Assembly: GCF_024753215.1 (NCBI RefSeq)
Contig: NZ_JANUGV010000001.1
Coordinates: 992,001-1,056,000, forward strand
Direction: 5' to 3'
Length of the DNA: 64,000 nt
Source of the DNA: Massilia solisilvae
Lineage (GTDB): Bacteria; Pseudomonadota; Gammaproteobacteria; Burkholderiales; Burkholderiaceae_D
Shown: positions 45,306 to 52,640 of the stretch, piece by piece
Layout: each line of letters begins with the position of its first letter
How positions within the stretch are numbered: the first letter of the stretch is position 1
Translations under genes and position numbers: made by a program
The notes under the pieces: model-generated
What the model was told of the DNA's origin: nothing
The model's database searches: none
The model's input: the letters and a program-made list of their open reading frames with translations, nothing else

Positions 45306-46201
45306 ACGACCAGCGATCTCCTGACTACGTGCCCCAGGCGCCGGCTTCGTACGGGCGCCCGCGCGGCGAGCTGCGCGGGCGGCTCTACGACATCATCTTC
45401 GAGTCGGACACGCCGGCCGGCCGCCGCTTCGACATCGTGCTCGTGTGCGCGATCCTGCTCAGCATCCTGGTGGTGGTGCTCGACAGCGTTCCCGAACTGG
45501 ACAAAGACTATGACGGCGTGCTGTTCGCGGCCGAGTGCGTGTTCACCGCCCTGTTCACCGCAGAATACCTGGCGCGGCTCTGGTGCGTGCGCCGGCCGTG
45601 GCGCTACGCGACAGGCTTCTACGGCATCGTCGACCTGCTGTCGGTGCTGCCCACGTATTTTTCGCTGCTGGTGCCGGGCAGCGCGCTGCTGCTGGACATT
45701 CGCATCCTGCGCCTGCTGCGCGTCTTCCGGATCTTCAAGCTCACGCTGTACGTGCAGGAGTACACCCGCCTGGGCGAGGCCCTGCTGGCAAGCCGCCGCA
45801 AGATCCTGGTGTTCCTGTCCGCCGTGGTGATGGCAGTGCTGGTGCTGGGCACCGTGATGTACGTGGTCGAGGGGCCGAAGAACGGTTACACCAGCATCCC
45901 GGTCTCGATGTACTGGGCCATTGTGACCATGACCACCGTGGGCTACGGCGACATCACGCCGCACACCAGCCTGGGCAAGCTGATCGCCTCGTTCATGATG
46001 CTGCTGGGGTGGGGCATCCTGGCCGTGCCCACGGGAATCGTGACGGCGGAGATGACGCGCCAGGAATGGGGCCGGCGCGCGGGACGGGAGAGCGCGGCGC
46101 CGGCGTGTGCTGCGTGCGGGTCGCGCGGTCACGCGAGCGCGGCCCGCTTCTGCAAGGACTGCGGGGCAGCGCTGCCGTCCCGCAGTCCCGCCGGCACTTA
46201 G
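45302..46201 (+). CDS. Voltage-gated potassium channel with C-terminal zinc ribbon
   Basis: 299 residues with six transmembrane helices. Helix S4 has a basic residue every third place (Arg134, 137, 140, 143, Lys146). The selectivity filter is TVGYGD (212-217) between S5 and S6. No RCK/TrkA domain follows; instead there is a short linker and a Cys269-x2-Cys272-x11-Cys284-x2-Cys287 zinc ribbon. A zinc-binding tail could sense redox or zinc state, but this is inference. The gene ends 4 bases inside the convergent TonB-receptor gene. Confidence 0.9.
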   Translation: MNDQRSPDYVPQAPASYGRPRGELRGRLYDIIFESDTPAGRRFDIVLVCAILLSILVVVLDSVPELDKDYDGVLFAAECVFTALFTAEYLARLWCVRRPWRYATGFYGIVDLLSVLPTYFSLLVPGSALLLDIRILRLLRVFRIFKLTLYVQEYTRLGEALLASRRKILVFLSAVVMAVLVLGTVMYVVEGPKNGYTSIPVSMYWAIVTMTTVGYGDITPHTSLGKLIASFMMLLGWGILAVPTGIVTAEMTRQEWGRRAGRESAAPACAACGSRGHASAARFCKDCGAALPSRSPAGT

Positions 46202-48651
46202 AACTTCATGCTGGCACGCGCATAGTAGTAGCCGCCGTTGATCCCGAACGGCGAGAACGACGGGTAGAGCGTGACCGCGCCGTTATCCAGGTTGGCGCGG
46301 CGCTCGGCCAGCAGCTTCGCGTTGACCTGGTTCGGGTAGGTGTTGAACAGGTTGTTCGCACCCACCGCGAAGGTCCAGGCCTTGGTCGGGCTGTAGGCAA
46401 GCTCCAGGTCGGTGATCCAGGTCGGTTTGACCTCGTTCTTGTACCACACGGCGCCGTCGGACGAGTCGAGCGATTCGGACCTTCCGTAGAAGGCCTCGCG
46501 CAGGTTCATCGTCCACTTCCCAAGCTTCCACAACGCACCCAGGTTCAGGCGCGTGCGCGGCGAGGCGGTTTCGATGTCGGCGATCGCCGACGGATCGAGC
46601 AGCGTCTGCGGCTGCAGCTGGGCCGGGGCCTGGTTGATCTTGGTGACCTCGACCTTGTTGTAGTTGGCCGCTGCCGACCAGTCCACCTTCCCCCACTCGC
46701 CATAACTGCTGTTCAGTGTGGCGACGAACTCCAGGCCGCGGCTACGGGTGTTGACCGCGTTCGAGAAGATGTTGATGCCGGTCTGTACCACGGTCGGGTC
46801 GAGCACGTTGCCGTTGGCGATGATGGCCTTGATGACCGCCGGCGAGTTGATCGCGCCGCCCGAGCCGTACAGCGCGCCGCTGCCGACGATGCGGTCGCGG
46901 ATGCTGATCTGGTAGGCGTCCAGCGTGATCGCCAGGTTCGCGCTCGGGTGCAGCACGATGCCCGCACTGATGTTGGTCGAGGCTTCGGGCTTCAGGCCAT
47001 TCACGCCGACCAGCTTGGCACCGGCGGAGTTCGGCGGCAGCTGGACGAAGGCGCTGCGCGGCGACACGTTGGTGGCCGAGTAGTATTCCTCGGCCAGCGT
47101 CGGCGCACGGAAGCCGTTGCTGTAGGTGGCACGCACGCCAACCGCCGGCGAGAAGTCGTAGCGCGTGGTCAGCTTGCCCACCTTGGCGTTGCCGAAGTCG
47201 CTGAAGTGCTCGTAGCGCGCGGCCAGGTCCACCGTCAGGTCGGTGACAGGCTTGCCCGAGACGTTCACGTAGCCGGCCTTGCCGGTGCGGCTGTGCGAGC
47301 CGGCGTCGGTCAGCGAAAAGCCCGGGAACGACTGCGAGCCTTCCTTGTAGCGCGAAGCGGCGTCGCCGGCCACGATCTCGTAGGTGTCGCGGCGCTGCTC
47401 CAGGCCCGCGGCCACGTTCAGCGGCGACGCCATGCCGACGTCGAATTCACGCGACAGGTCCAGGTTGTTGGTCAGCTGGCCTGCGTGAAATTCGCCGGCC
47501 CTGAACTCCGTGGGCGTGAAGCCGGTATCGTTGAACAGCGAAACGTTGGCCGAGCTGGCCACGCCGATCTTGCTCACGTCCTTGCCGTAGGTGCTGGACA
47601 GGTCGAAGTGCCAGCCCAGCGCCTTGAACTTGGCGCCGAGCGTGAGCGCGTAATCCTGCTCGTTGAAGGTCTCCAGCGGCGAGAAGCCGTTCGGGTAGAC
47701 CTTCGGGATGCGGCTGGGCATGCGGTAATTCTCGAACGCGCGCGCCTTCTTTTCGCCGTAGGTGGCAAAGCTGTACACGCTGGCGTCGTTGCTGATGTCG
47801 GCGCCGAAGTTCGCGGCGAACACGTGCTGGCGGTACTGGGCGTCGCCCGAGATCCGGTTCAGGTACGGGTACAGGCTGTTGTTCTTCAGTGTCGGCTGTG
47901 CGGCCAGCGTGCCCGGGTCGGTCACGCGCGGGTCGATCCCGCCGCGGTTGGAAAAGCCGTGGAACTTCGATTCGGCGGTCAGGCTCAGGAAGGCGCCCTC
48001 GAACGGCGTGAGCCCCATGTTGGCCGAGGCGTCGCCGGTGTGGCCGCCTTCGTCCATGTAGCCGCCGCCGTTCATGCTGGCGGTGCCGCCCTGGTAGTTC
48101 GATTTGAGGATGATGTTGATCACGCCGGCGATGGCGTCGGTGCCGTACTGCGCAGCGGCGCCGTCCTGCAGCACCTCGACGTGGTCGATCGCGGCGATCG
48201 GGATGTAGTTCAGGTCGGCCGCGGCGCCGCCCTGGTACGGGCCACCGAGCACCGACAGGTTCGAGGTGCCGTGGCGGCGCTTGCCGTTCACGAGCACCAG
48301 CGTGTTGTTGGGCGACAGGCCGCGCAGGCGCGCGGACAGCGTCATCGCGGCCATGTCGCTGCCGAACGCCTGAGCGTTCAGCGAGGGCAGGTTTTGCGAC
48401 AGCGCCTGCATCAGGTCAGGCTGGCCGGCGCGCGACAGCGAAGTGGCGTCGAGCACCTGCACCGGCGAGGCGCTGTCCTCGACTTTGAGGCCGGTGGCAC
48501 GGGTGCCGGTCACGATCACGACGCCCGCATTGGCCACCTGCGCGGCAGGATCTGGGGTCTCGGGCGGCTTGTCTTCGGCGGCGTGGGCCAGGCCCAGACC
48601 CGAGTGCAGGACGATGGCGGCGACGCCGCCCTTGAGGATTGCCTTTTGCAT
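46198..48651 (-). CDS. TonB-dependent outer-membrane receptor
   Basis: 817 residues. A signal peptide (cleavage near A-H-A-A-E) is followed by a plug domain with the VVIVTGTRATG TonB-box-like start and the ALSQNLPSLN and LNYIPIAAIDHVEVLQDGAAAQYGTDAIAGVINI plug signatures (seen as IDHVEVLQDG), and a 22-strand barrel ending in aromatic YYYARASMKF. It imports a large or scarce substrate using TonB energy. It is the last gene of the oxidase/cytochrome/Rid operon, 65 bases after the Rid gene, with AAGGGAAA before its start. Confidence 0.93.
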   Translation of the reverse strand: MQKAILKGGVAAIVLHSGLGLAHAAEDKPPETPDPAAQVANAGVVIVTGTRATGLKVEDSASPVQVLDATSLSRAGQPDLMQALSQNLPSLNAQAFGSDMAAMTLSARLRGLSPNNTLVLVNGKRRHGTSNLSVLGGPYQGGAAADLNYIPIAAIDHVEVLQDGAAAQYGTDAIAGVINIILKSNYQGGTASMNGGGYMDEGGHTGDASANMGLTPFEGAFLSLTAESKFHGFSNRGGIDPRVTDPGTLAAQPTLKNNSLYPYLNRISGDAQYRQHVFAANFGADISNDASVYSFATYGEKKARAFENYRMPSRIPKVYPNGFSPLETFNEQDYALTLGAKFKALGWHFDLSSTYGKDVSKIGVASSANVSLFNDTGFTPTEFRAGEFHAGQLTNNLDLSREFDVGMASPLNVAAGLEQRRDTYEIVAGDAASRYKEGSQSFPGFSLTDAGSHSRTGKAGYVNVSGKPVTDLTVDLAARYEHFSDFGNAKVGKLTTRYDFSPAVGVRATYSNGFRAPTLAEEYYSATNVSPRSAFVQLPPNSAGAKLVGVNGLKPEASTNISAGIVLHPSANLAITLDAYQISIRDRIVGSGALYGSGGAINSPAVIKAIIANGNVLDPTVVQTGINIFSNAVNTRSRGLEFVATLNSSYGEWGKVDWSAAANYNKVEVTKINQAPAQLQPQTLLDPSAIADIETASPRTRLNLGALWKLGKWTMNLREAFYGRSESLDSSDGAVWYKNEVKPTWITDLELAYSPTKAWTFAVGANNLFNTYPNQVNAKLLAERRANLDNGAVTLYPSFSPFGINGGYYYARASMKF

Positions 48652-48716
48652 GGATTTCCCTTTTTTGGTCGAACAGTTTTGTGTACAACTTCTGGAAAAC
48701 AGGGAGCGGCGGTCGG

Positions 48717-49211
48717 TTACTTTTTGGCGGCCACCACCTCGATCTCGACGAGCCAGCCCGGATTGGAGAGCGCAGCCACCTGGATCACCGCGCGCGCCGG
48801 CAGGTTGGGCTGGGCGCCGCCGAAGAACTGCGTGTAGCCCTGCATGAAGCCGGCCACGTCGGCCTTGCCGTTCTTGGCCGGGTCGCCGACCAGGAAGACC
48901 TGCATCTTGACCACGTCGCCCATCGACAGGCCCATGCCCTTGAGGATCTCGGCGATCTTCTTGAGCACGCCCTCGGTCTGGGTCTTGGTGTCGCCGAACG
49001 CGGCGAGCGAGTTGGGGTCGGCCGACTTGTCCACCAGCGGCGGCACCTGGCCGCTGACGAAGCTGATGGCGGTACCGGCCGGCAGCGTGACGGCCTGCGC
49101 GATCGGGAAATCGGAGCCCGGGATCTTGTGGCGGACGATCGCCGGCCCGGCCGCGCTGGCGGCCAGCGGCATCAGGCAGAAGAGGGCGGCGAGCAGTTTT
49201 TGCTTGTTCAT
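48717..49211 (-). CDS. Exported RidA-family imine/enamine deaminase
   Basis: 164 residues. Residues 1-21 form a signal peptide (LLAALFCLMPLAASAAG), so the protein acts in the periplasm, unlike the cytosolic RidA of E. coli. The Rid domain has ISFVSGQVPP, MGDVVKMQVFLV, and the C-terminal LPARAVIQVAALSNPGWLVEIE with the key Arg140 matching Arg105 of RidA. Rid enzymes hydrolyse reactive imines and enamines to ketones and ammonia. It lies between the cytochrome c and receptor genes. Confidence 0.9.
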   Translation of the reverse strand: MNKQKLLAALFCLMPLAASAAGPAIVRHKIPGSDFPIAQAVTLPAGTAISFVSGQVPPLVDKSADPNSLAAFGDTKTQTEGVLKKIAEILKGMGLSMGDVVKMQVFLVGDPAKNGKADVAGFMQGYTQFFGGAQPNLPARAVIQVAALSNPGWLVEIEVVAAKK

Positions 49212-49243
49212 GCGGTGTTTCTCCTGGGGTTTTGAAAGAGGGT

Positions 49244-49654
49244 TCAGTGCTTGTTGCCGAAGCGGCTGTGGCTGGCGGGCGGCACCTGCAGTTCGGTGCG
49301 CAGCGCGCTCACTTCGTCCTGCGACAGCGGCGCGGCGCTGTTGCCCCAGCTGCTGCGCACGTAGCTGAGCACTTGCGCGATCTCGGCGTCGTCCAGGCTG
49401 CCGCTGAAGTTGGGCATGCCGCCGCGGCCCTTGAGCAGCACGCTGGCCGGGTCGCGCGATGGTCCTTGCACGAAGGTGTTGCCGGCCAGCGCAGGGAAGG
49501 CGCCGGGGATGCCTTTGCCGGTCGGCTGGTGGCAGGCGGCGCAGTTCTTGACGAACAGCGCCTGGCCGGCGGGCGTGTCGGCCCGCACGTTCGTGTGCCA
49601 GGCCACGGCGGCGGCCATCAGCGCCGACCCGATCGCGAGTTCGTGGAATTTCAT
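49244..49654 (-). CDS. Periplasmic class I cytochrome c
   Basis: 136 residues with a signal peptide (A-V-A-W-H-T-N-V-R-A-D) and one haem site, Cys38-Ala-Ala-Cys41-His42, followed by a probable Met ligand in GGMPNFSG. The fold is that of small monohaem cytochromes c. The gene begins 4 bases inside the end of the flavin oxidase gene (ATGA), a sign that it is its electron acceptor. Confidence 0.93.
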   Translation of the reverse strand: MKFHELAIGSALMAAAVAWHTNVRADTPAGQALFVKNCAACHQPTGKGIPGAFPALAGNTFVQGPSRDPASVLLKGRGGMPNFSGSLDDAEIAQVLSYVRSSWGNSAAPLSQDEVSALRTELQVPPASHSRFGNKH

Positions 49655-51231
49655 GCCATGGCCCTCCGGTGGATTTTTTCGATCTGCTGCCAGGCCGATT
49701 CGATGGCGCCGGCTTGCCAGCCGGTCAGGTAGCTCAGGTGTTCGCCGGCCAGCATCACGCGGCCTTCGCCTTCCTGCAGCGTGGGGTAGGCGTCCTTGCG
49801 CCCGTCGTCGGTCCATTCGGCCCAGCCGCCCAGGTTGTACTGGACGCGGTGCCAGGCCACGGAGAAGGCGTTCTCGAAAGAAGAGCGGTAGGCGCCCGGG
49901 AAGATCTTTTCGCCGGCGTCCAGCGCAAACTGCGCGCGCTCGGCAGGCGACAGCGCGCTCACCTCGATCGCGTCGAGCGCGTAGTGGTAGTAGCCCAGCA
50001 CCACGCCTTTCCTGGACTGCCAGCCGGTCGACGGCAGGGAAATCGTGTTGATGGCCTTCAGGTCGGTCAGCACGTGGCCGCCGTAGATGCGCTCGTCCTC
50101 TTCCCAGAAGCGGCGGTTCATCTGCAGGCCGATCTTGCCGACCGGGGCATAGGCCACGCCGCGGATCGCGGTCTTGAATTTGTCGGTGAAGTCGGTGTCG
50201 ATCATGCGCAGCACCGACAGCGGGATCGTGCACAGGCAGTAGTCCGCGCCGATGGTGCTGACCTTGCCGCCGGCGTCCTTGTAGGTGACCAGCACCTGCT
50301 CGGCGTTCTGGCGGATCGACTGCACTTCGGCCCCGTAGCGGATGTGGCGGCGCACGCGCTTCTCGAACGCTTTTGCGATCTGGTCCATGCCGCCGACCGG
50401 CTGGAACATCGTCCCGTGCATCGGGAAGTCCTGCACCGCGCTGTACACCTTGCCCACCTTGGCGGCGAGCAGGTCGCGAAAGCCGAGCGGGTCCGACGGC
50501 GTGCCCGCCACCAGGCCGGCGCCGGGGTTGACCGCATAGCCGCGGCCGCTGCGGCCCTTGTACTGCAGTTCGGGGCCTTCGAGCGCGCCCTCGTGCTTGA
50601 GATAGTCGAGCAGTAGCATCTGGTCGTCCTGCGTGACCTGCTGGTCGAGCAGGCCGCCCTTGACCGACTTGGCGAGCAGCTCGGACACGTGGCCGCGCAT
50701 GTCGGCCTTGAGCTGTTCGCCGCGCAGGCGCTGCTTCGACAGCGGACCGGCGTCTTCCATGTACACGAAGGCGTGGTCGTTCTCGTTGACCATGACTTCG
50801 AGCGGCACGTCGAACTGGCGCGTGTAGTACAGCGTCGACTGGTGGTCGAGCGGGATGCGCCAAGGGCCGTGGTTGATGTACTGGCCCTGGTCGAACTTGC
50901 AGTGCTGGGTTTCGCCGCCCAGTTCCTGCAGCGCGAAACCCTTGCGTGCACTCTGGCAGCGGCCGCCGGCGAAGTGGCGCGCCTCGAGCACCTGGCAGTC
51001 GTAGCCGAGCTTGGCGAGCTCGTACGCGGCCGTCATGCCGGCCAGGCCGGCACCGAGGATCACGATCTTCTTGCCTTTGCCGCTGCCGCTCAGTTGCGGG
51101 GGCGCGACGGCCTGCGAGGCGATCCCCATTCCCCATGCGTTCATCGTGTTGAGCAGCAGCGCCGAACCGCCGACCATGGCGGCACGATATAAAAATTCAC
51201 GTCTTGTTACTGACCGGGCCTTGCTGTCCAT
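49651..51231 (-). CDS. Tat-exported flavin amine/amino-acid oxidase
   Basis: 526 residues. The N-terminus has a twin-arginine signal (Arg10-Arg11 in VTRREFLYRAA), so the folded flavoprotein would be exported. The FAD Rossmann motif is ILGAGLAGMTAAYEL at 58-72 followed by LEARHFAGGRCQS. The family includes monoamine oxidases and L-amino-acid oxidases. The ATG at 51231 has GAGGTG upstream; a longer frame reaches 51303 but would run through the sigma-54 promoter. It overlaps a cytochrome c gene, suggesting dehydrogenase activity rather than use of oxygen (inference). Confidence 0.92.
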   Translation of the reverse strand: MDSKARSVTRREFLYRAAMVGGSALLLNTMNAWGMGIASQAVAPPQLSGSGKGKKIVILGAGLAGMTAAYELAKLGYDCQVLEARHFAGGRCQSARKGFALQELGGETQHCKFDQGQYINHGPWRIPLDHQSTLYYTRQFDVPLEVMVNENDHAFVYMEDAGPLSKQRLRGEQLKADMRGHVSELLAKSVKGGLLDQQVTQDDQMLLLDYLKHEGALEGPELQYKGRSGRGYAVNPGAGLVAGTPSDPLGFRDLLAAKVGKVYSAVQDFPMHGTMFQPVGGMDQIAKAFEKRVRRHIRYGAEVQSIRQNAEQVLVTYKDAGGKVSTIGADYCLCTIPLSVLRMIDTDFTDKFKTAIRGVAYAPVGKIGLQMNRRFWEEDERIYGGHVLTDLKAINTISLPSTGWQSRKGVVLGYYHYALDAIEVSALSPAERAQFALDAGEKIFPGAYRSSFENAFSVAWHRVQYNLGGWAEWTDDGRKDAYPTLQEGEGRVMLAGEHLSYLTGWQAGAIESAWQQIEKIHRRAMA

Positions 51232-51285
51232 CCGCACCTCGATAAGTGATTGCTGAAAACGAAACTGGTGAAACACAAGAGCAAA

Positions 51286-51303
51286 TAGCAATAGCTGTGC
51301 CAA
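51286..51303 (-). promoter_or_regulatory. Sigma-54 promoter of the oxidase operon
   Basis: On the minus strand the sequence is TTGGCACAGCTATTGCTA, with the -24 GG (51301-51300) and -12 GC (51289-51288) ten bases apart. It matches the TGGCAC-N5-TTGC consensus in every key position. Predicted start of transcription is about 12 bases further on, leaving a leader of ~45 bases before the oxidase ATG. Confidence 0.72.
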
Positions 51304-51616
51304 TCACGGTGAGGTCGGGAGAATTTTTTTCTTTGAAAAATAATGTTGTGCCCGCAGCGCGCCGTGTGGCGGACGGGCCGGGACGCGCGGGCGGAAAATA
51401 AAGTTGGCGCGTGGCGACTGCGGCTTGCGTGCACTGGATGGCGCTCGCGCCCACGCGCCCGGTCAGGCGTTGCGTCACATGCGTTGGCGCGCAAGGTTCG
51501 CGATGCGACGGCTGACTGCCTGACGTATGCACAGACTGTATTTTTCAAGCGCCAGACTTTATTTGCGGGAGCGTCCGTTCACGCGCGGCCAGGCGTGTGC
51601 GGCGACGGCACGCAAG

Positions 51617-51647
51617 CCCGGTGCGCGCCGCACCAGCGCGCACCGGG
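51617..51647. terminator. Strong hairpin after transposase remnant
   Basis: CCCGGTGCGCGC (51617-51628) pairs perfectly with GCGCGCACCGGG (51636-51647) around a 7-base loop. No T-run follows on either strand, so it may be a Rho-dependent terminator or an RNA element. Confidence 0.4.
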
Positions 51648-51678
51648 TTGTTGCACTACGGTTGGGAGAAGGTGTGCG

Positions 51679-52404
51679 TCAGCGCAGCGCGCAGGCGGCG
51701 TCGCGCTCGATCCAGTACTTGAACTGGCCGAAGGTGGGAATGGAGGAGTCGTCGCGCTCGCGGAAGAAGTCTTCGAGCATTTGGCGGTAGGCGCCGCGCC
51801 GCGAGAACTCGGCATGCGTGGCAGCGTAGCGCGCCACGGCGGTGCGGAAGGTGGCGCGGATCTGGGCGTCCGCATTCAGGCCCGGTTGCGAGGCATCCTT
51901 GCGCGGGCGCCCGCGCTTGACGTGCGCGTTGGGCACGCGGATCTTTCCCGGCGCGCCGGAGTTGGCATAGTCCGGAAGCAGCGCGGCCAATGTCTGCCCG
52001 CGCTCCCAATAGCGCCGCAGGTAGCGCAGAATGGTGGCACGCGACACGCCCGTTTCGGCCACGCGGTGCGCGATCATTTCGGCCCGGCGGCGCGGGAGGA
52101 AGATCGCGGGCGCGCTTGCCACCAGCGGGGCGATCACCTCCCATGCCCTGGCCTGCAGTTCGCGATGCTTCTCGGGCACCGCCGCCGCGGGGCAGGCTGG
52201 TGCGCCCGGATCGACCAGCAGCAGCGACAGGCGCCGGGATCGCACGTCCGCTTCCAGCATCGCCACCCGCGCCGGTTGCGGCAGCGCGCACGGCGTCTCC
52301 AACTGATAGGTGAATGCGACCTCCTGTTTTGCATCGATCCACAGGACACGCATCGTTTTCCCGTCCGGCCCGCAGGCGCGGAGCACATCGTTCGCAAGCA
52401 ACAT
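51679..52404 (-). pseudogene. Truncated TnsB/Mu-type transposase remnant
   Basis: 241 residues that match only the N-terminal part of TnsB-like DDE transposases. MLLANDVLRACG at the start, a helix-turn-helix near RAEMIAHRVAETGVSRATILRYLRRYWERG (seen as VSRATILRYLRR), ALLPDYANSG and KRGRPRK follow the family, and PTFGQFKYWIERD near the end is where the catalytic domain would begin. The gene stops there, so no DDE site is present (full-length TnsB is ~650-700 residues). No terminal repeats or tnsA/C genes are visible. It could instead be a retained DNA-binding protein. Confidence 0.6.
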
Positions 52405-52640
52405 TCGAAACACTGGCAACAGTTAAGGCACAGTGCTTTATGCAAATATCGCGCCAGCAAGCGGGCTGCACCTTTATGGCAGATCAAGAGCCACCTGGCC
52501 GTATCCCCTAGCCTTGCTCCTTGTGCTGGCATGAACCATTCGCGCACCGGGATAGGGCAAACCCAGCATCCCGTTCGTGCGCGGGCAGCCTCGCGCCGCC
52601 GTGCCGGTTCCTTCCACTACCATTTACCTGGAGGCGACCC

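What the first reader, a model, noticed from the sequence alone, without database searches (positions are those of the whole stretch)
46198..51303. Periplasmic oxidase-cytochrome-Rid-TonB operon for amine or amino-acid catabolism
Four genes on the minus strand form one unit: a Tat-exported flavin amine/amino-acid oxidase, an overlapping cytochrome c, a RidA protein with its own signal peptide, and a TonB receptor. Oxidation of an amine gives a reactive imine; RidA hydrolyses imines; and a cytochrome could take the electrons instead of oxygen. Together they suggest a periplasmic pathway that imports, oxidises and safely deaminates one substrate without producing hydrogen peroxide. Family roles are established; the pathway is inference. 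I know of no described system of this make-up.
Basis: partly seen in the sequence, partly recalled or inferred. Interest (0 to 1): 0.8.

Follow-up and report, generated by a model that had tools for sequence, protein, structure and literature searches.

The report
Exported amino-acid dehydrogenase operon
This bacterium carries neighbouring genes that most likely strip nitrogen from amino acids outside its inner membrane, pass the electrons to its respiratory chain and hydrolyse the reactive product; the three-gene core has been described before, while the attached outer-membrane receptor and the swapping of electron carriers among relatives seem to be new.

Summary
The four genes are real, with one correction: the oxidase most likely starts at ATG 51231, not 51303. 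[quoted passage not shown]

The claim that no such system is described is not: lao-cccA-ridA was reported in Gluconacetobacter diazotrophicus in 2016 with the same hypothesis (PMC5053998), and Tat-exported flavin amine dehydrogenases using an operon cytochrome c are established for NicA2 relatives (PMC12224317).

Evidence added here: the residue aligned with roLAAO's carboxylate-binding Arg is invariant in 60 of 60 relatives; oxidase and Rid3 occur in the same 14 of 41 related genomes, always 422-512 bp apart; cytochrome linkage changes 3 times on the enzyme tree; one plasmid joins LAAO and cytochrome c to cytochrome oxidase genes, another joins LAAO and Rid to tatAC; in Proteus a Rid3 gene follows the unrelated Tat-type L-amino acid deaminase.

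No biochemistry was possible. Electron route, substrate and receptor role are inference. A new variant of a known kind.

The parts
49651..51231 (-). LAAO-fold flavoenzyme (526 aa) with Tat signal RREFL at residues 10-14
49244..49654 (-). monohaem cytochrome c (136 aa) with Sec-type signal peptide by eye, overlapping the oxidase by 4 nt
48717..49211 (-). exported Rid3-type imine deaminase (164 aa); Arg140, Glu158, Ile37
46198..48651 (-). TonB-dependent outer-membrane receptor (817 aa), plug and barrel

Best explanation
The operon encodes a periplasmic, respiration-linked L-amino acid deamination module. The LAAO-fold enzyme is exported folded with FAD by Tat and oxidises an L-amino acid to the imino acid. 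Its reduced flavin passes electrons one at a time to the cytochrome c encoded next to it, which feeds a haem-copper cytochrome c oxidase, so little or no H2O2 forms. The exported Rid3 protein hydrolyses the imino acid to 2-oxo acid and ammonia in the same compartment. The TonB receptor probably brings the substrate, or a peptide or conjugate of it, across the outer membrane. Shown here: gene content, order, conservation, export signals by sequence, LAAO fold, conserved carboxylate-site and Rid residues, co-occurrence of oxidase and Rid. Inferred: electron route, absence of H2O2, Rid activity on this product, substrate identity, receptor role.
Against: The closest solved relative, roLAAO, is known as an O2-using oxidase (recalled). 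8 of 31 phylum-sample oxidases have no cytochrome next door although they carry RR motifs, and Woeseiaceae-type ones have none either. Rid is not always near: 6 of 30 rows lack it within 4 kb, and L027 keeps the other three genes. A Bosea plasmid has a related Rid with no oxidase or cytochrome within 5 kb. The TonB receptor is near only 13 of 30 phylum-sample oxidases, 1 of 11 opened plasmid loci. The related Proteus enzyme can use O2 when the chain is blocked (PMC5651824, passages).
Confidence: 0.72

Rival explanations
1. A periplasmic LAAO that uses O2 and makes H2O2; the cytochrome c serves peroxide removal or another reaction, and H2O2 may act on competitors or decarboxylate the oxo acid.
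For: The nearest solved enzyme, roLAAO, is an O2-using oxidase (recalled); cytochrome-less Tat-type relatives exist in the same family; PMC12224317 found most tested Tat enzymes without adjacent cytochrome react fast with O2.
Against: That same paper found Tat plus operon cytochrome to be a good predictor of dehydrogenase function; D. shibae couples the pair to cytochrome oxidase genes; ccm mutants of G. diazotrophicus made 5% of the IAA (cited in PMC5053998).
Confidence: 0.17
2. An auxin or indole-pyruvate pathway: the enzyme is specific for tryptophan and the operon makes IAA precursors outside the cell, as proposed for G. diazotrophicus.
For: lao insertion mutants of G. diazotrophicus lost IAA and plant-root effects (PMC5053998, abstract and Discussion part 1); several plasmid carriers come from root nodules or rhizosphere.
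Against: The residue aligned with roLAAO Gln228 varies among relatives (M, H, F, Q and others at 271), so one shared substrate is unlikely; carriers also come from seawater, feces and cell culture; orthology with GDI2456 was not tested; IAA can be a by-product of a broad deaminase.
Confidence: 0.12
3. The TonB receptor is a separate gene (for example for iron or haem, supplying the cytochrome) and only the first three genes form the module.
For: Its solved matches are siderophore, B12 and colicin receptors; the three-gene core occurs without it in many loci; 65-nt gap; 37 receptor genes in this genome.
Against: 30 of 31 close loci keep it downstream; linked receptors up to 77% identical, and 49-64% in loci with other gene orders; Sphingomonas has LAAO-receptor-Rid.
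Confidence: 0.4

Closest known systems
lao-cccA-ridA operon of Gluconacetobacter diazotrophicus PAL5 (PMC5053998)
   Same: LAAO with Tat signal, cytochrome c and RidA in one cluster; same hypothesis of cytochrome and Rid assisting the LAAO; also noted there in Caulobacter crescentus and Xanthomonas
   Different: TonB is not mentioned in that paper (0 occurrences); no kinetics; orthology of the enzymes not tested here; framed as auxin synthesis
NicA2-CycN-Pnao and other cytochrome-c-using flavoprotein amine dehydrogenases (PMC9396064, PMC12224317)
   Same: Tat-exported flavoenzyme of the same superfamily with an adjacent Sec-exported cytochrome c
   Different: Survey was built from NicA2 relatives and does not mention LAAO (0 occurrences); NicA2 (PDB 6c71 sequence group) aligns with the query only over residues 9-109 at about 34 bits; Rid was not searched for in that text
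Rhodococcus opacus L-amino acid oxidase (2jae)
   Different: 36% identity; no comparison of its gene neighbourhood made here; O2 use is recalled
Proteus L-amino acid deaminase (5fjm; PMC5651824)
   Same: Tat-type signal, L-amino acid deamination outside the cytoplasm, electrons thought to go to the membrane chain; Rid3 gene 40 nt downstream in P. mirabilis H63
   Different: Different flavoprotein family (Pfam DAO), membrane-bound, no cytochrome gene seen beside it
LAO1/LAO2(RidA) of Chlamydomonas (PMC10805672)
   Same: Periplasmic LAAO with a RidA partner scavenging nitrogen from amino acids
   Different: Makes H2O2, no cytochrome c in the described pair, eukaryote
Rid3 proteins PSPTO_3006 and PFL_1385 (PMC5619798; PDB 9bka, 9bkc)
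   Same: Closest solved relatives; imine deaminase activity on LAAO products in vitro
   Different: 'signal' and 'periplasm' do not occur in that paper; partner enzymes unknown there

Membership tests
L-amino acid oxidase, R. opacus type | Fold and full-length similarity | tested here: met
L-amino acid oxidase, R. opacus type | Arg and Tyr binding the substrate carboxylate (labels recalled) | tested here: met
   R125 in 60 of 60, Y415 Y56/F4
L-amino acid oxidase, R. opacus type | O2 as electron acceptor, H2O2 product | not testable with these tools
   needs kinetics
Cytochrome-c-using flavoprotein amine dehydrogenases (PMC12224317) | Tat signal on the flavoenzyme | tested here: met
   RREFL plus hydrophobic stretch; judged by sequence, no predictor run
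Cytochrome-c-using flavoprotein amine dehydrogenases (PMC12224317) | Adjacent cytochrome c gene with Sec signal | tested here: met
   49654-49244, 4-nt overlap; signal judged by eye
Cytochrome-c-using flavoprotein amine dehydrogenases (PMC12224317) | Place in clades 1-3 of the published tree | tested here: inconclusive
   No tree with NicA2 was built; the query is far closer to roLAAO (294 bits) than to the NicA2 chain (34 bits)
Cytochrome-c-using flavoprotein amine dehydrogenases (PMC12224317) | Slow with O2, fast with own cytochrome | not testable with these tools
   needs stopped flow
lao-cccA-ridA cluster (PMC5053998) | LAAO, cytochrome c and Rid genes clustered on one strand | tested here: met
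lao-cccA-ridA cluster (PMC5053998) | Orthology of the LAAO with GDI2456 | not tested
   that sequence was not fetched
lao-cccA-ridA cluster (PMC5053998) | Cotranscription and IAA phenotype | not testable with these tools
   bench work
Rid3 subfamily | Catalytic Arg and Glu kept, Tyr replaced by Ile (PMC4433059) | tested here: met
   Arg140, Glu158, Ile37 in P0003; 76, 74 and 76 of 76 aligned rows
Rid3 subfamily | Nearest characterised members are Rid3 | tested here: met
   9bka 1.6e-34 and 9bkc 2.6e-32, next match 3.5e-9; Rid3 per PMC5619798
Rid3 subfamily | Imine hydrolysis | not testable with these tools
   needs the semicarbazone assay

The most novel reading that the evidence does not exclude
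This is one form of a widespread envelope module in which an exported LAAO-fold dehydrogenase keeps an exported Rid3 imine deaminase while its electron acceptor is swapped between lineages: a small cytochrome c, a larger different cytochrome, a dedicated cytochrome oxidase, or, in Woeseiaceae-type loci without Rid3, a YceI-domain protein (perhaps a quinone carrier). Rid3 would then be the envelope branch of the Rid family, serving respiratory amino-acid deamination outside the cytoplasm, also with the unrelated Proteus deaminase; in Oxalobacteraceae the module includes its own outer-membrane importer.
Probability: 0.42. Interest if true: 0.68.

Novelty: new variant of a known kind. Interest (0 to 1): 0.52.

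Why it matters
LAAOs are generally described as H2O2-producing oxidases. If this clade donates to cytochrome c, many proteins now annotated 'flavin monoamine oxidase' are respiratory dehydrogenases, and the oxidase/dehydrogenase switch could be studied by comparing sister clades. It would also give Rid3, whose in vivo substrates are unknown (PMC4433059), a definite place and job: hydrolysing imino acids outside the cytoplasm. Both can be tested with purified proteins.

Tried and rejected
Considered and set aside: (1) A general amine oxidase: the LAAO fold and conserved carboxylate-site residues argue against it. (2) Chance proximity: gene order and co-occurrence argue against it. (3) Oxidase-cytochrome or oxidase-Rid fusions as direct proof: none among 111 oxidase ORFs of the loci held. 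(4) CcmH-type cytochrome maturation: no match in the genome; ResB of the other system is present. (5) The receptor's substrate from solved relatives: partial matches, mostly around the plug, to siderophore, B12 and colicin receptors; no inference drawn. (6) Residues separating cytochrome-linked from distant cytochrome-less oxidases were listed (W124, R230, R432 and G440 among them); they follow the tree and I did not interpret them. (7) A strict signal-peptide rule was met by 18 of 23, 7 of 17 and 15 of 34 linked Rids; most failures looked like signal peptides by eye, so a looser rule was made after seeing them (21 of 23, 16 of 17, 34 of 34). It is a rule of my own, no trained predictor. It passes L122, whose aligned start (MSDSIQ) shows none, and fails L116 and L131, which look exported; L122 and L123 are the two exceptions by eye. 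(8) Literature: ten searches. The one for roLAAO Arg84/Tyr371 listed nothing; the one aimed at receptor plus LAAO plus Rid plus cytochrome listed 6 papers, none of which, by title and term counts, is about this four-gene set. The library holds open-licence papers only.

Counting notes. One search counts only a same-strand downstream cytochrome within 500 bp and gives 17 of 30; the second oxidase of L105 and L108 also have one upstream on the same strand, making 19 of 30, and the window's own 20 of 31; L121, L124 and L125 have a different cytochrome, making 23 of 31. One of the 24 of 30 Rid counts (first oxidase of L105) is the Rid of the neighbouring operon. In the named set L064 was dropped (30 residues of oxidase) and L011 is split in two, so the 58 rows are 57 loci. 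L099 and L128 were left out of the tree, and of the named loci only 20 entered it; L129 was not scored and L130 (1.3 kb of contig downstream) was scored as without cytochrome. Of 36 plasmid records with an oxidase match 11 were opened: 9 have a cytochrome c next to the oxidase, 7 a Rid nearby, 1 a TonB receptor; PLSDB gene tables are incomplete. Of 23 records with a Rid match 5 were opened by it: Proteus (deaminase-Rid), Komagataeibacter and Azospirillum (Rid with a cytochrome gene amid insertion sequences, no oxidase annotated), Sulfitobacter W074 (truncated oxidase, cytochrome, Rid), Bosea (Rid with neither). The protein search listed the best 120 of 4376.
Full report
WHAT IS THERE. The window lies in a 5.2-Mb genome; by this enzyme the nearest named relative found is Massilia agilis (97% identity). 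On the minus strand stand four ORFs: oxidase 51231-49651, cytochrome c 49654-49244, Rid 49211-48717 and TonB receptor 48651-46198. The first two overlap by ATGA; the next gaps are 32 and 65 nt. The pattern scan found no promoter-like site in 46000-51700 and no terminator-like site between the genes; cotranscription is likely, not shown.

THE RID IS RID3-LIKE AND EXPORTED. Its nearest solved relatives are PSPTO3006 and PFL1385, assigned to Rid3 and shown to act in vitro on imines made by an LAAO (PMC5619798, passages). The marks given in PMC4433059 (passages) hold: Arg in 76 of 76 aligned Rids, Glu in 74, Ile in place of Tyr in 76. A signal-peptide rule of my own is met by 71 of 74 linked Rids; by eye the true exceptions are L122 and L123, two relatives without cytochrome. 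Of the 6 Rid genes in this genome, 5 were matched by the profile: this one, one lipoprotein-like, three without an evident signal.

CONSERVATION. Of 31 named loci with an oxidase 74-97% identical to the query, 30 keep all four genes in order; L027 lacks Rid. Among 41 genomes chosen as relatives, 25 of them of the same genus, oxidase (E 1e-60 or better) and Rid3 (1e-25 or better) are each found in 14, and these are the same 14, all of the genus; in each the two lie on one contig 422-512 bp apart, which is room for the cytochrome gene. With 6 Rid genes in 5.2 Mb, an 8-kb stretch should hold one about 1% of the time, and with 37 receptor barrels a receptor about 6% (my arithmetic). In an even sample of 398 genomes of the phylum, 27 have 31 such oxidases: 20 with a cytochrome of the window's type next door, 3 with a larger different one, 8 with none. 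Of the 30 outside the window, 24 have a Rid and 13 a TonB receptor within 4 kb. In the family sample (24 rows) the figures are 20 cytochrome, 18 Rid, 20 receptor. The enzyme is accessory: 22 of 145 genomes of the family.

TREE. On a quick tree of 61 rows (60 oxidases and roLAAO) presence of an adjacent cytochrome of either type changes three times. Two clades carry the window's cytochrome type, with one exception (L130, near a contig end); a 10-row clade with RR motifs has Rid in 8 of 10 and no cytochrome; three rows carry the other cytochrome; the Woeseiaceae-type clade has neither cytochrome nor Rid3, and a KR motif in place of RR in all 12 printed. In 14 of the 21 cytochrome-less loci of the named set a YceI-domain gene stands directly upstream (three of these made the profile), and no other locus searched has one. 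YceI proteins bind isoprenoid compounds (recalled), so a quinone route is conceivable, untested. Support is SH-aLRT only, long branches are flagged, and no shuffled-label control was run.

NATURAL EXPERIMENTS. 36 plasmid records hold a relative; I opened 11. Microvirga, Comamonas, Paracoccus, Ketogulonicigenium and Sulfitobacter read LAAO-cytochrome-Rid; Mesorhizobium and Rhizobium tropici LAAO-cytochrome; Deinococcus cytochrome-LAAO. Dinoroseobacter shibae pDSHI02 reads coxB-ctaD-hypothetical-CtaG-like-LAAO-cytochrome c (COX1 3.1e-148 and Caa3_CtaG 3.1e-20), which points to where the electrons go; it has no Rid beside it. Metabacillus reads LAAO-Rid-tatA-tatC without cytochrome, which points to export. 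Sphingomonas reads LAAO-receptor-Rid. In Proteus mirabilis H63 a Rid3-like gene with signal peptide lies 40 nt after a Tat-type L-amino acid deaminase of another flavoprotein family (5fjm, 1.6e-288), an enzyme thought to pass electrons to the membrane chain (PMC5651824, passages; that paper also found O2 use when the chain is blocked). Against: a Bosea plasmid has a related Rid with neither oxidase nor cytochrome within 5 kb.

HOST CAPACITY. The genome has TatC, 8 COX1-family matches over cut-off, ResB, no CcmH match, and one oxidase of this family.

WHAT IS KNOWN. PMC5053998 (abstract, passages, Discussion part 1) describes lao-cccA-ridA in G. diazotrophicus, lower transcripts of all three genes in a lao insertion mutant, loss of IAA, ccm mutants with 5% of IAA (cited from Lee et al. 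2004), and the hypothesis that cytochrome c and RidA assist the LAAO; it names Caulobacter crescentus and Xanthomonas as sharing the arrangement. PMC12224317 (passages) shows by kinetics that many Tat-exported members of the superfamily with an operon cytochrome are dehydrogenases; its survey starts from NicA2 and does not mention LAAO. PMC9396064 (abstract and passages) gives the Pnao case. PMC10805672 (passages) gives LAO1 with RidA in Chlamydomonas. A nicotine cluster in PMC7688666 lists rid, TonB receptor and cytochrome c in a figure legend (passages), with other enzymes.

VERDICT. This work adds the LAAO assignment, Rid3 as an exported partner, strict co-occurrence in the genus, the receptor in one lineage, and acceptor swapping along the tree. 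None of it was tested at the bench.

Noticed in passing
L042-L044, L046-L055, L063 (upstream of the oxidase): A YceI-domain gene stands directly upstream of cytochrome-less, Woeseiaceae-type LAAO genes in 14 of 21 cytochrome-less named loci and in no cytochrome-linked locus searched.
   Followed up: partly
L170:3539-5498: Proteus mirabilis H63: Rid3-like gene with signal peptide 40 nt downstream of a Tat-type L-amino acid deaminase.
   Followed up: partly
L161:315-7048: Dinoroseobacter shibae pDSHI02: cytochrome oxidase genes, LAAO and cytochrome c in one run of genes.
   Followed up: partly
L167:4992-8255: Metabacillus plasmid: LAAO-Rid-tatA-tatC, a dedicated Tat translocase beside the enzyme.
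   Followed up: no
L001 (G000:C12:291263-291601): A second Rid gene in the window's genome has a lipoprotein-like start (MRLKVAYSILLAAACLTGC), so another exported Rid may exist.
   Followed up: no
L121, L124, L125: A larger, different cytochrome (CxxCH near the N-terminus, about 200-aa ORF) lies beside the oxidase, suggesting separate recruitment of a cytochrome.
   Followed up: partly
G541:C18:34714-36288: A relative's oxidase copy carries one in-frame TAG.
   Followed up: no
window 51682-52419: A 246-aa minus-strand ORF upstream of the operon has no Pfam match.
   Followed up: no
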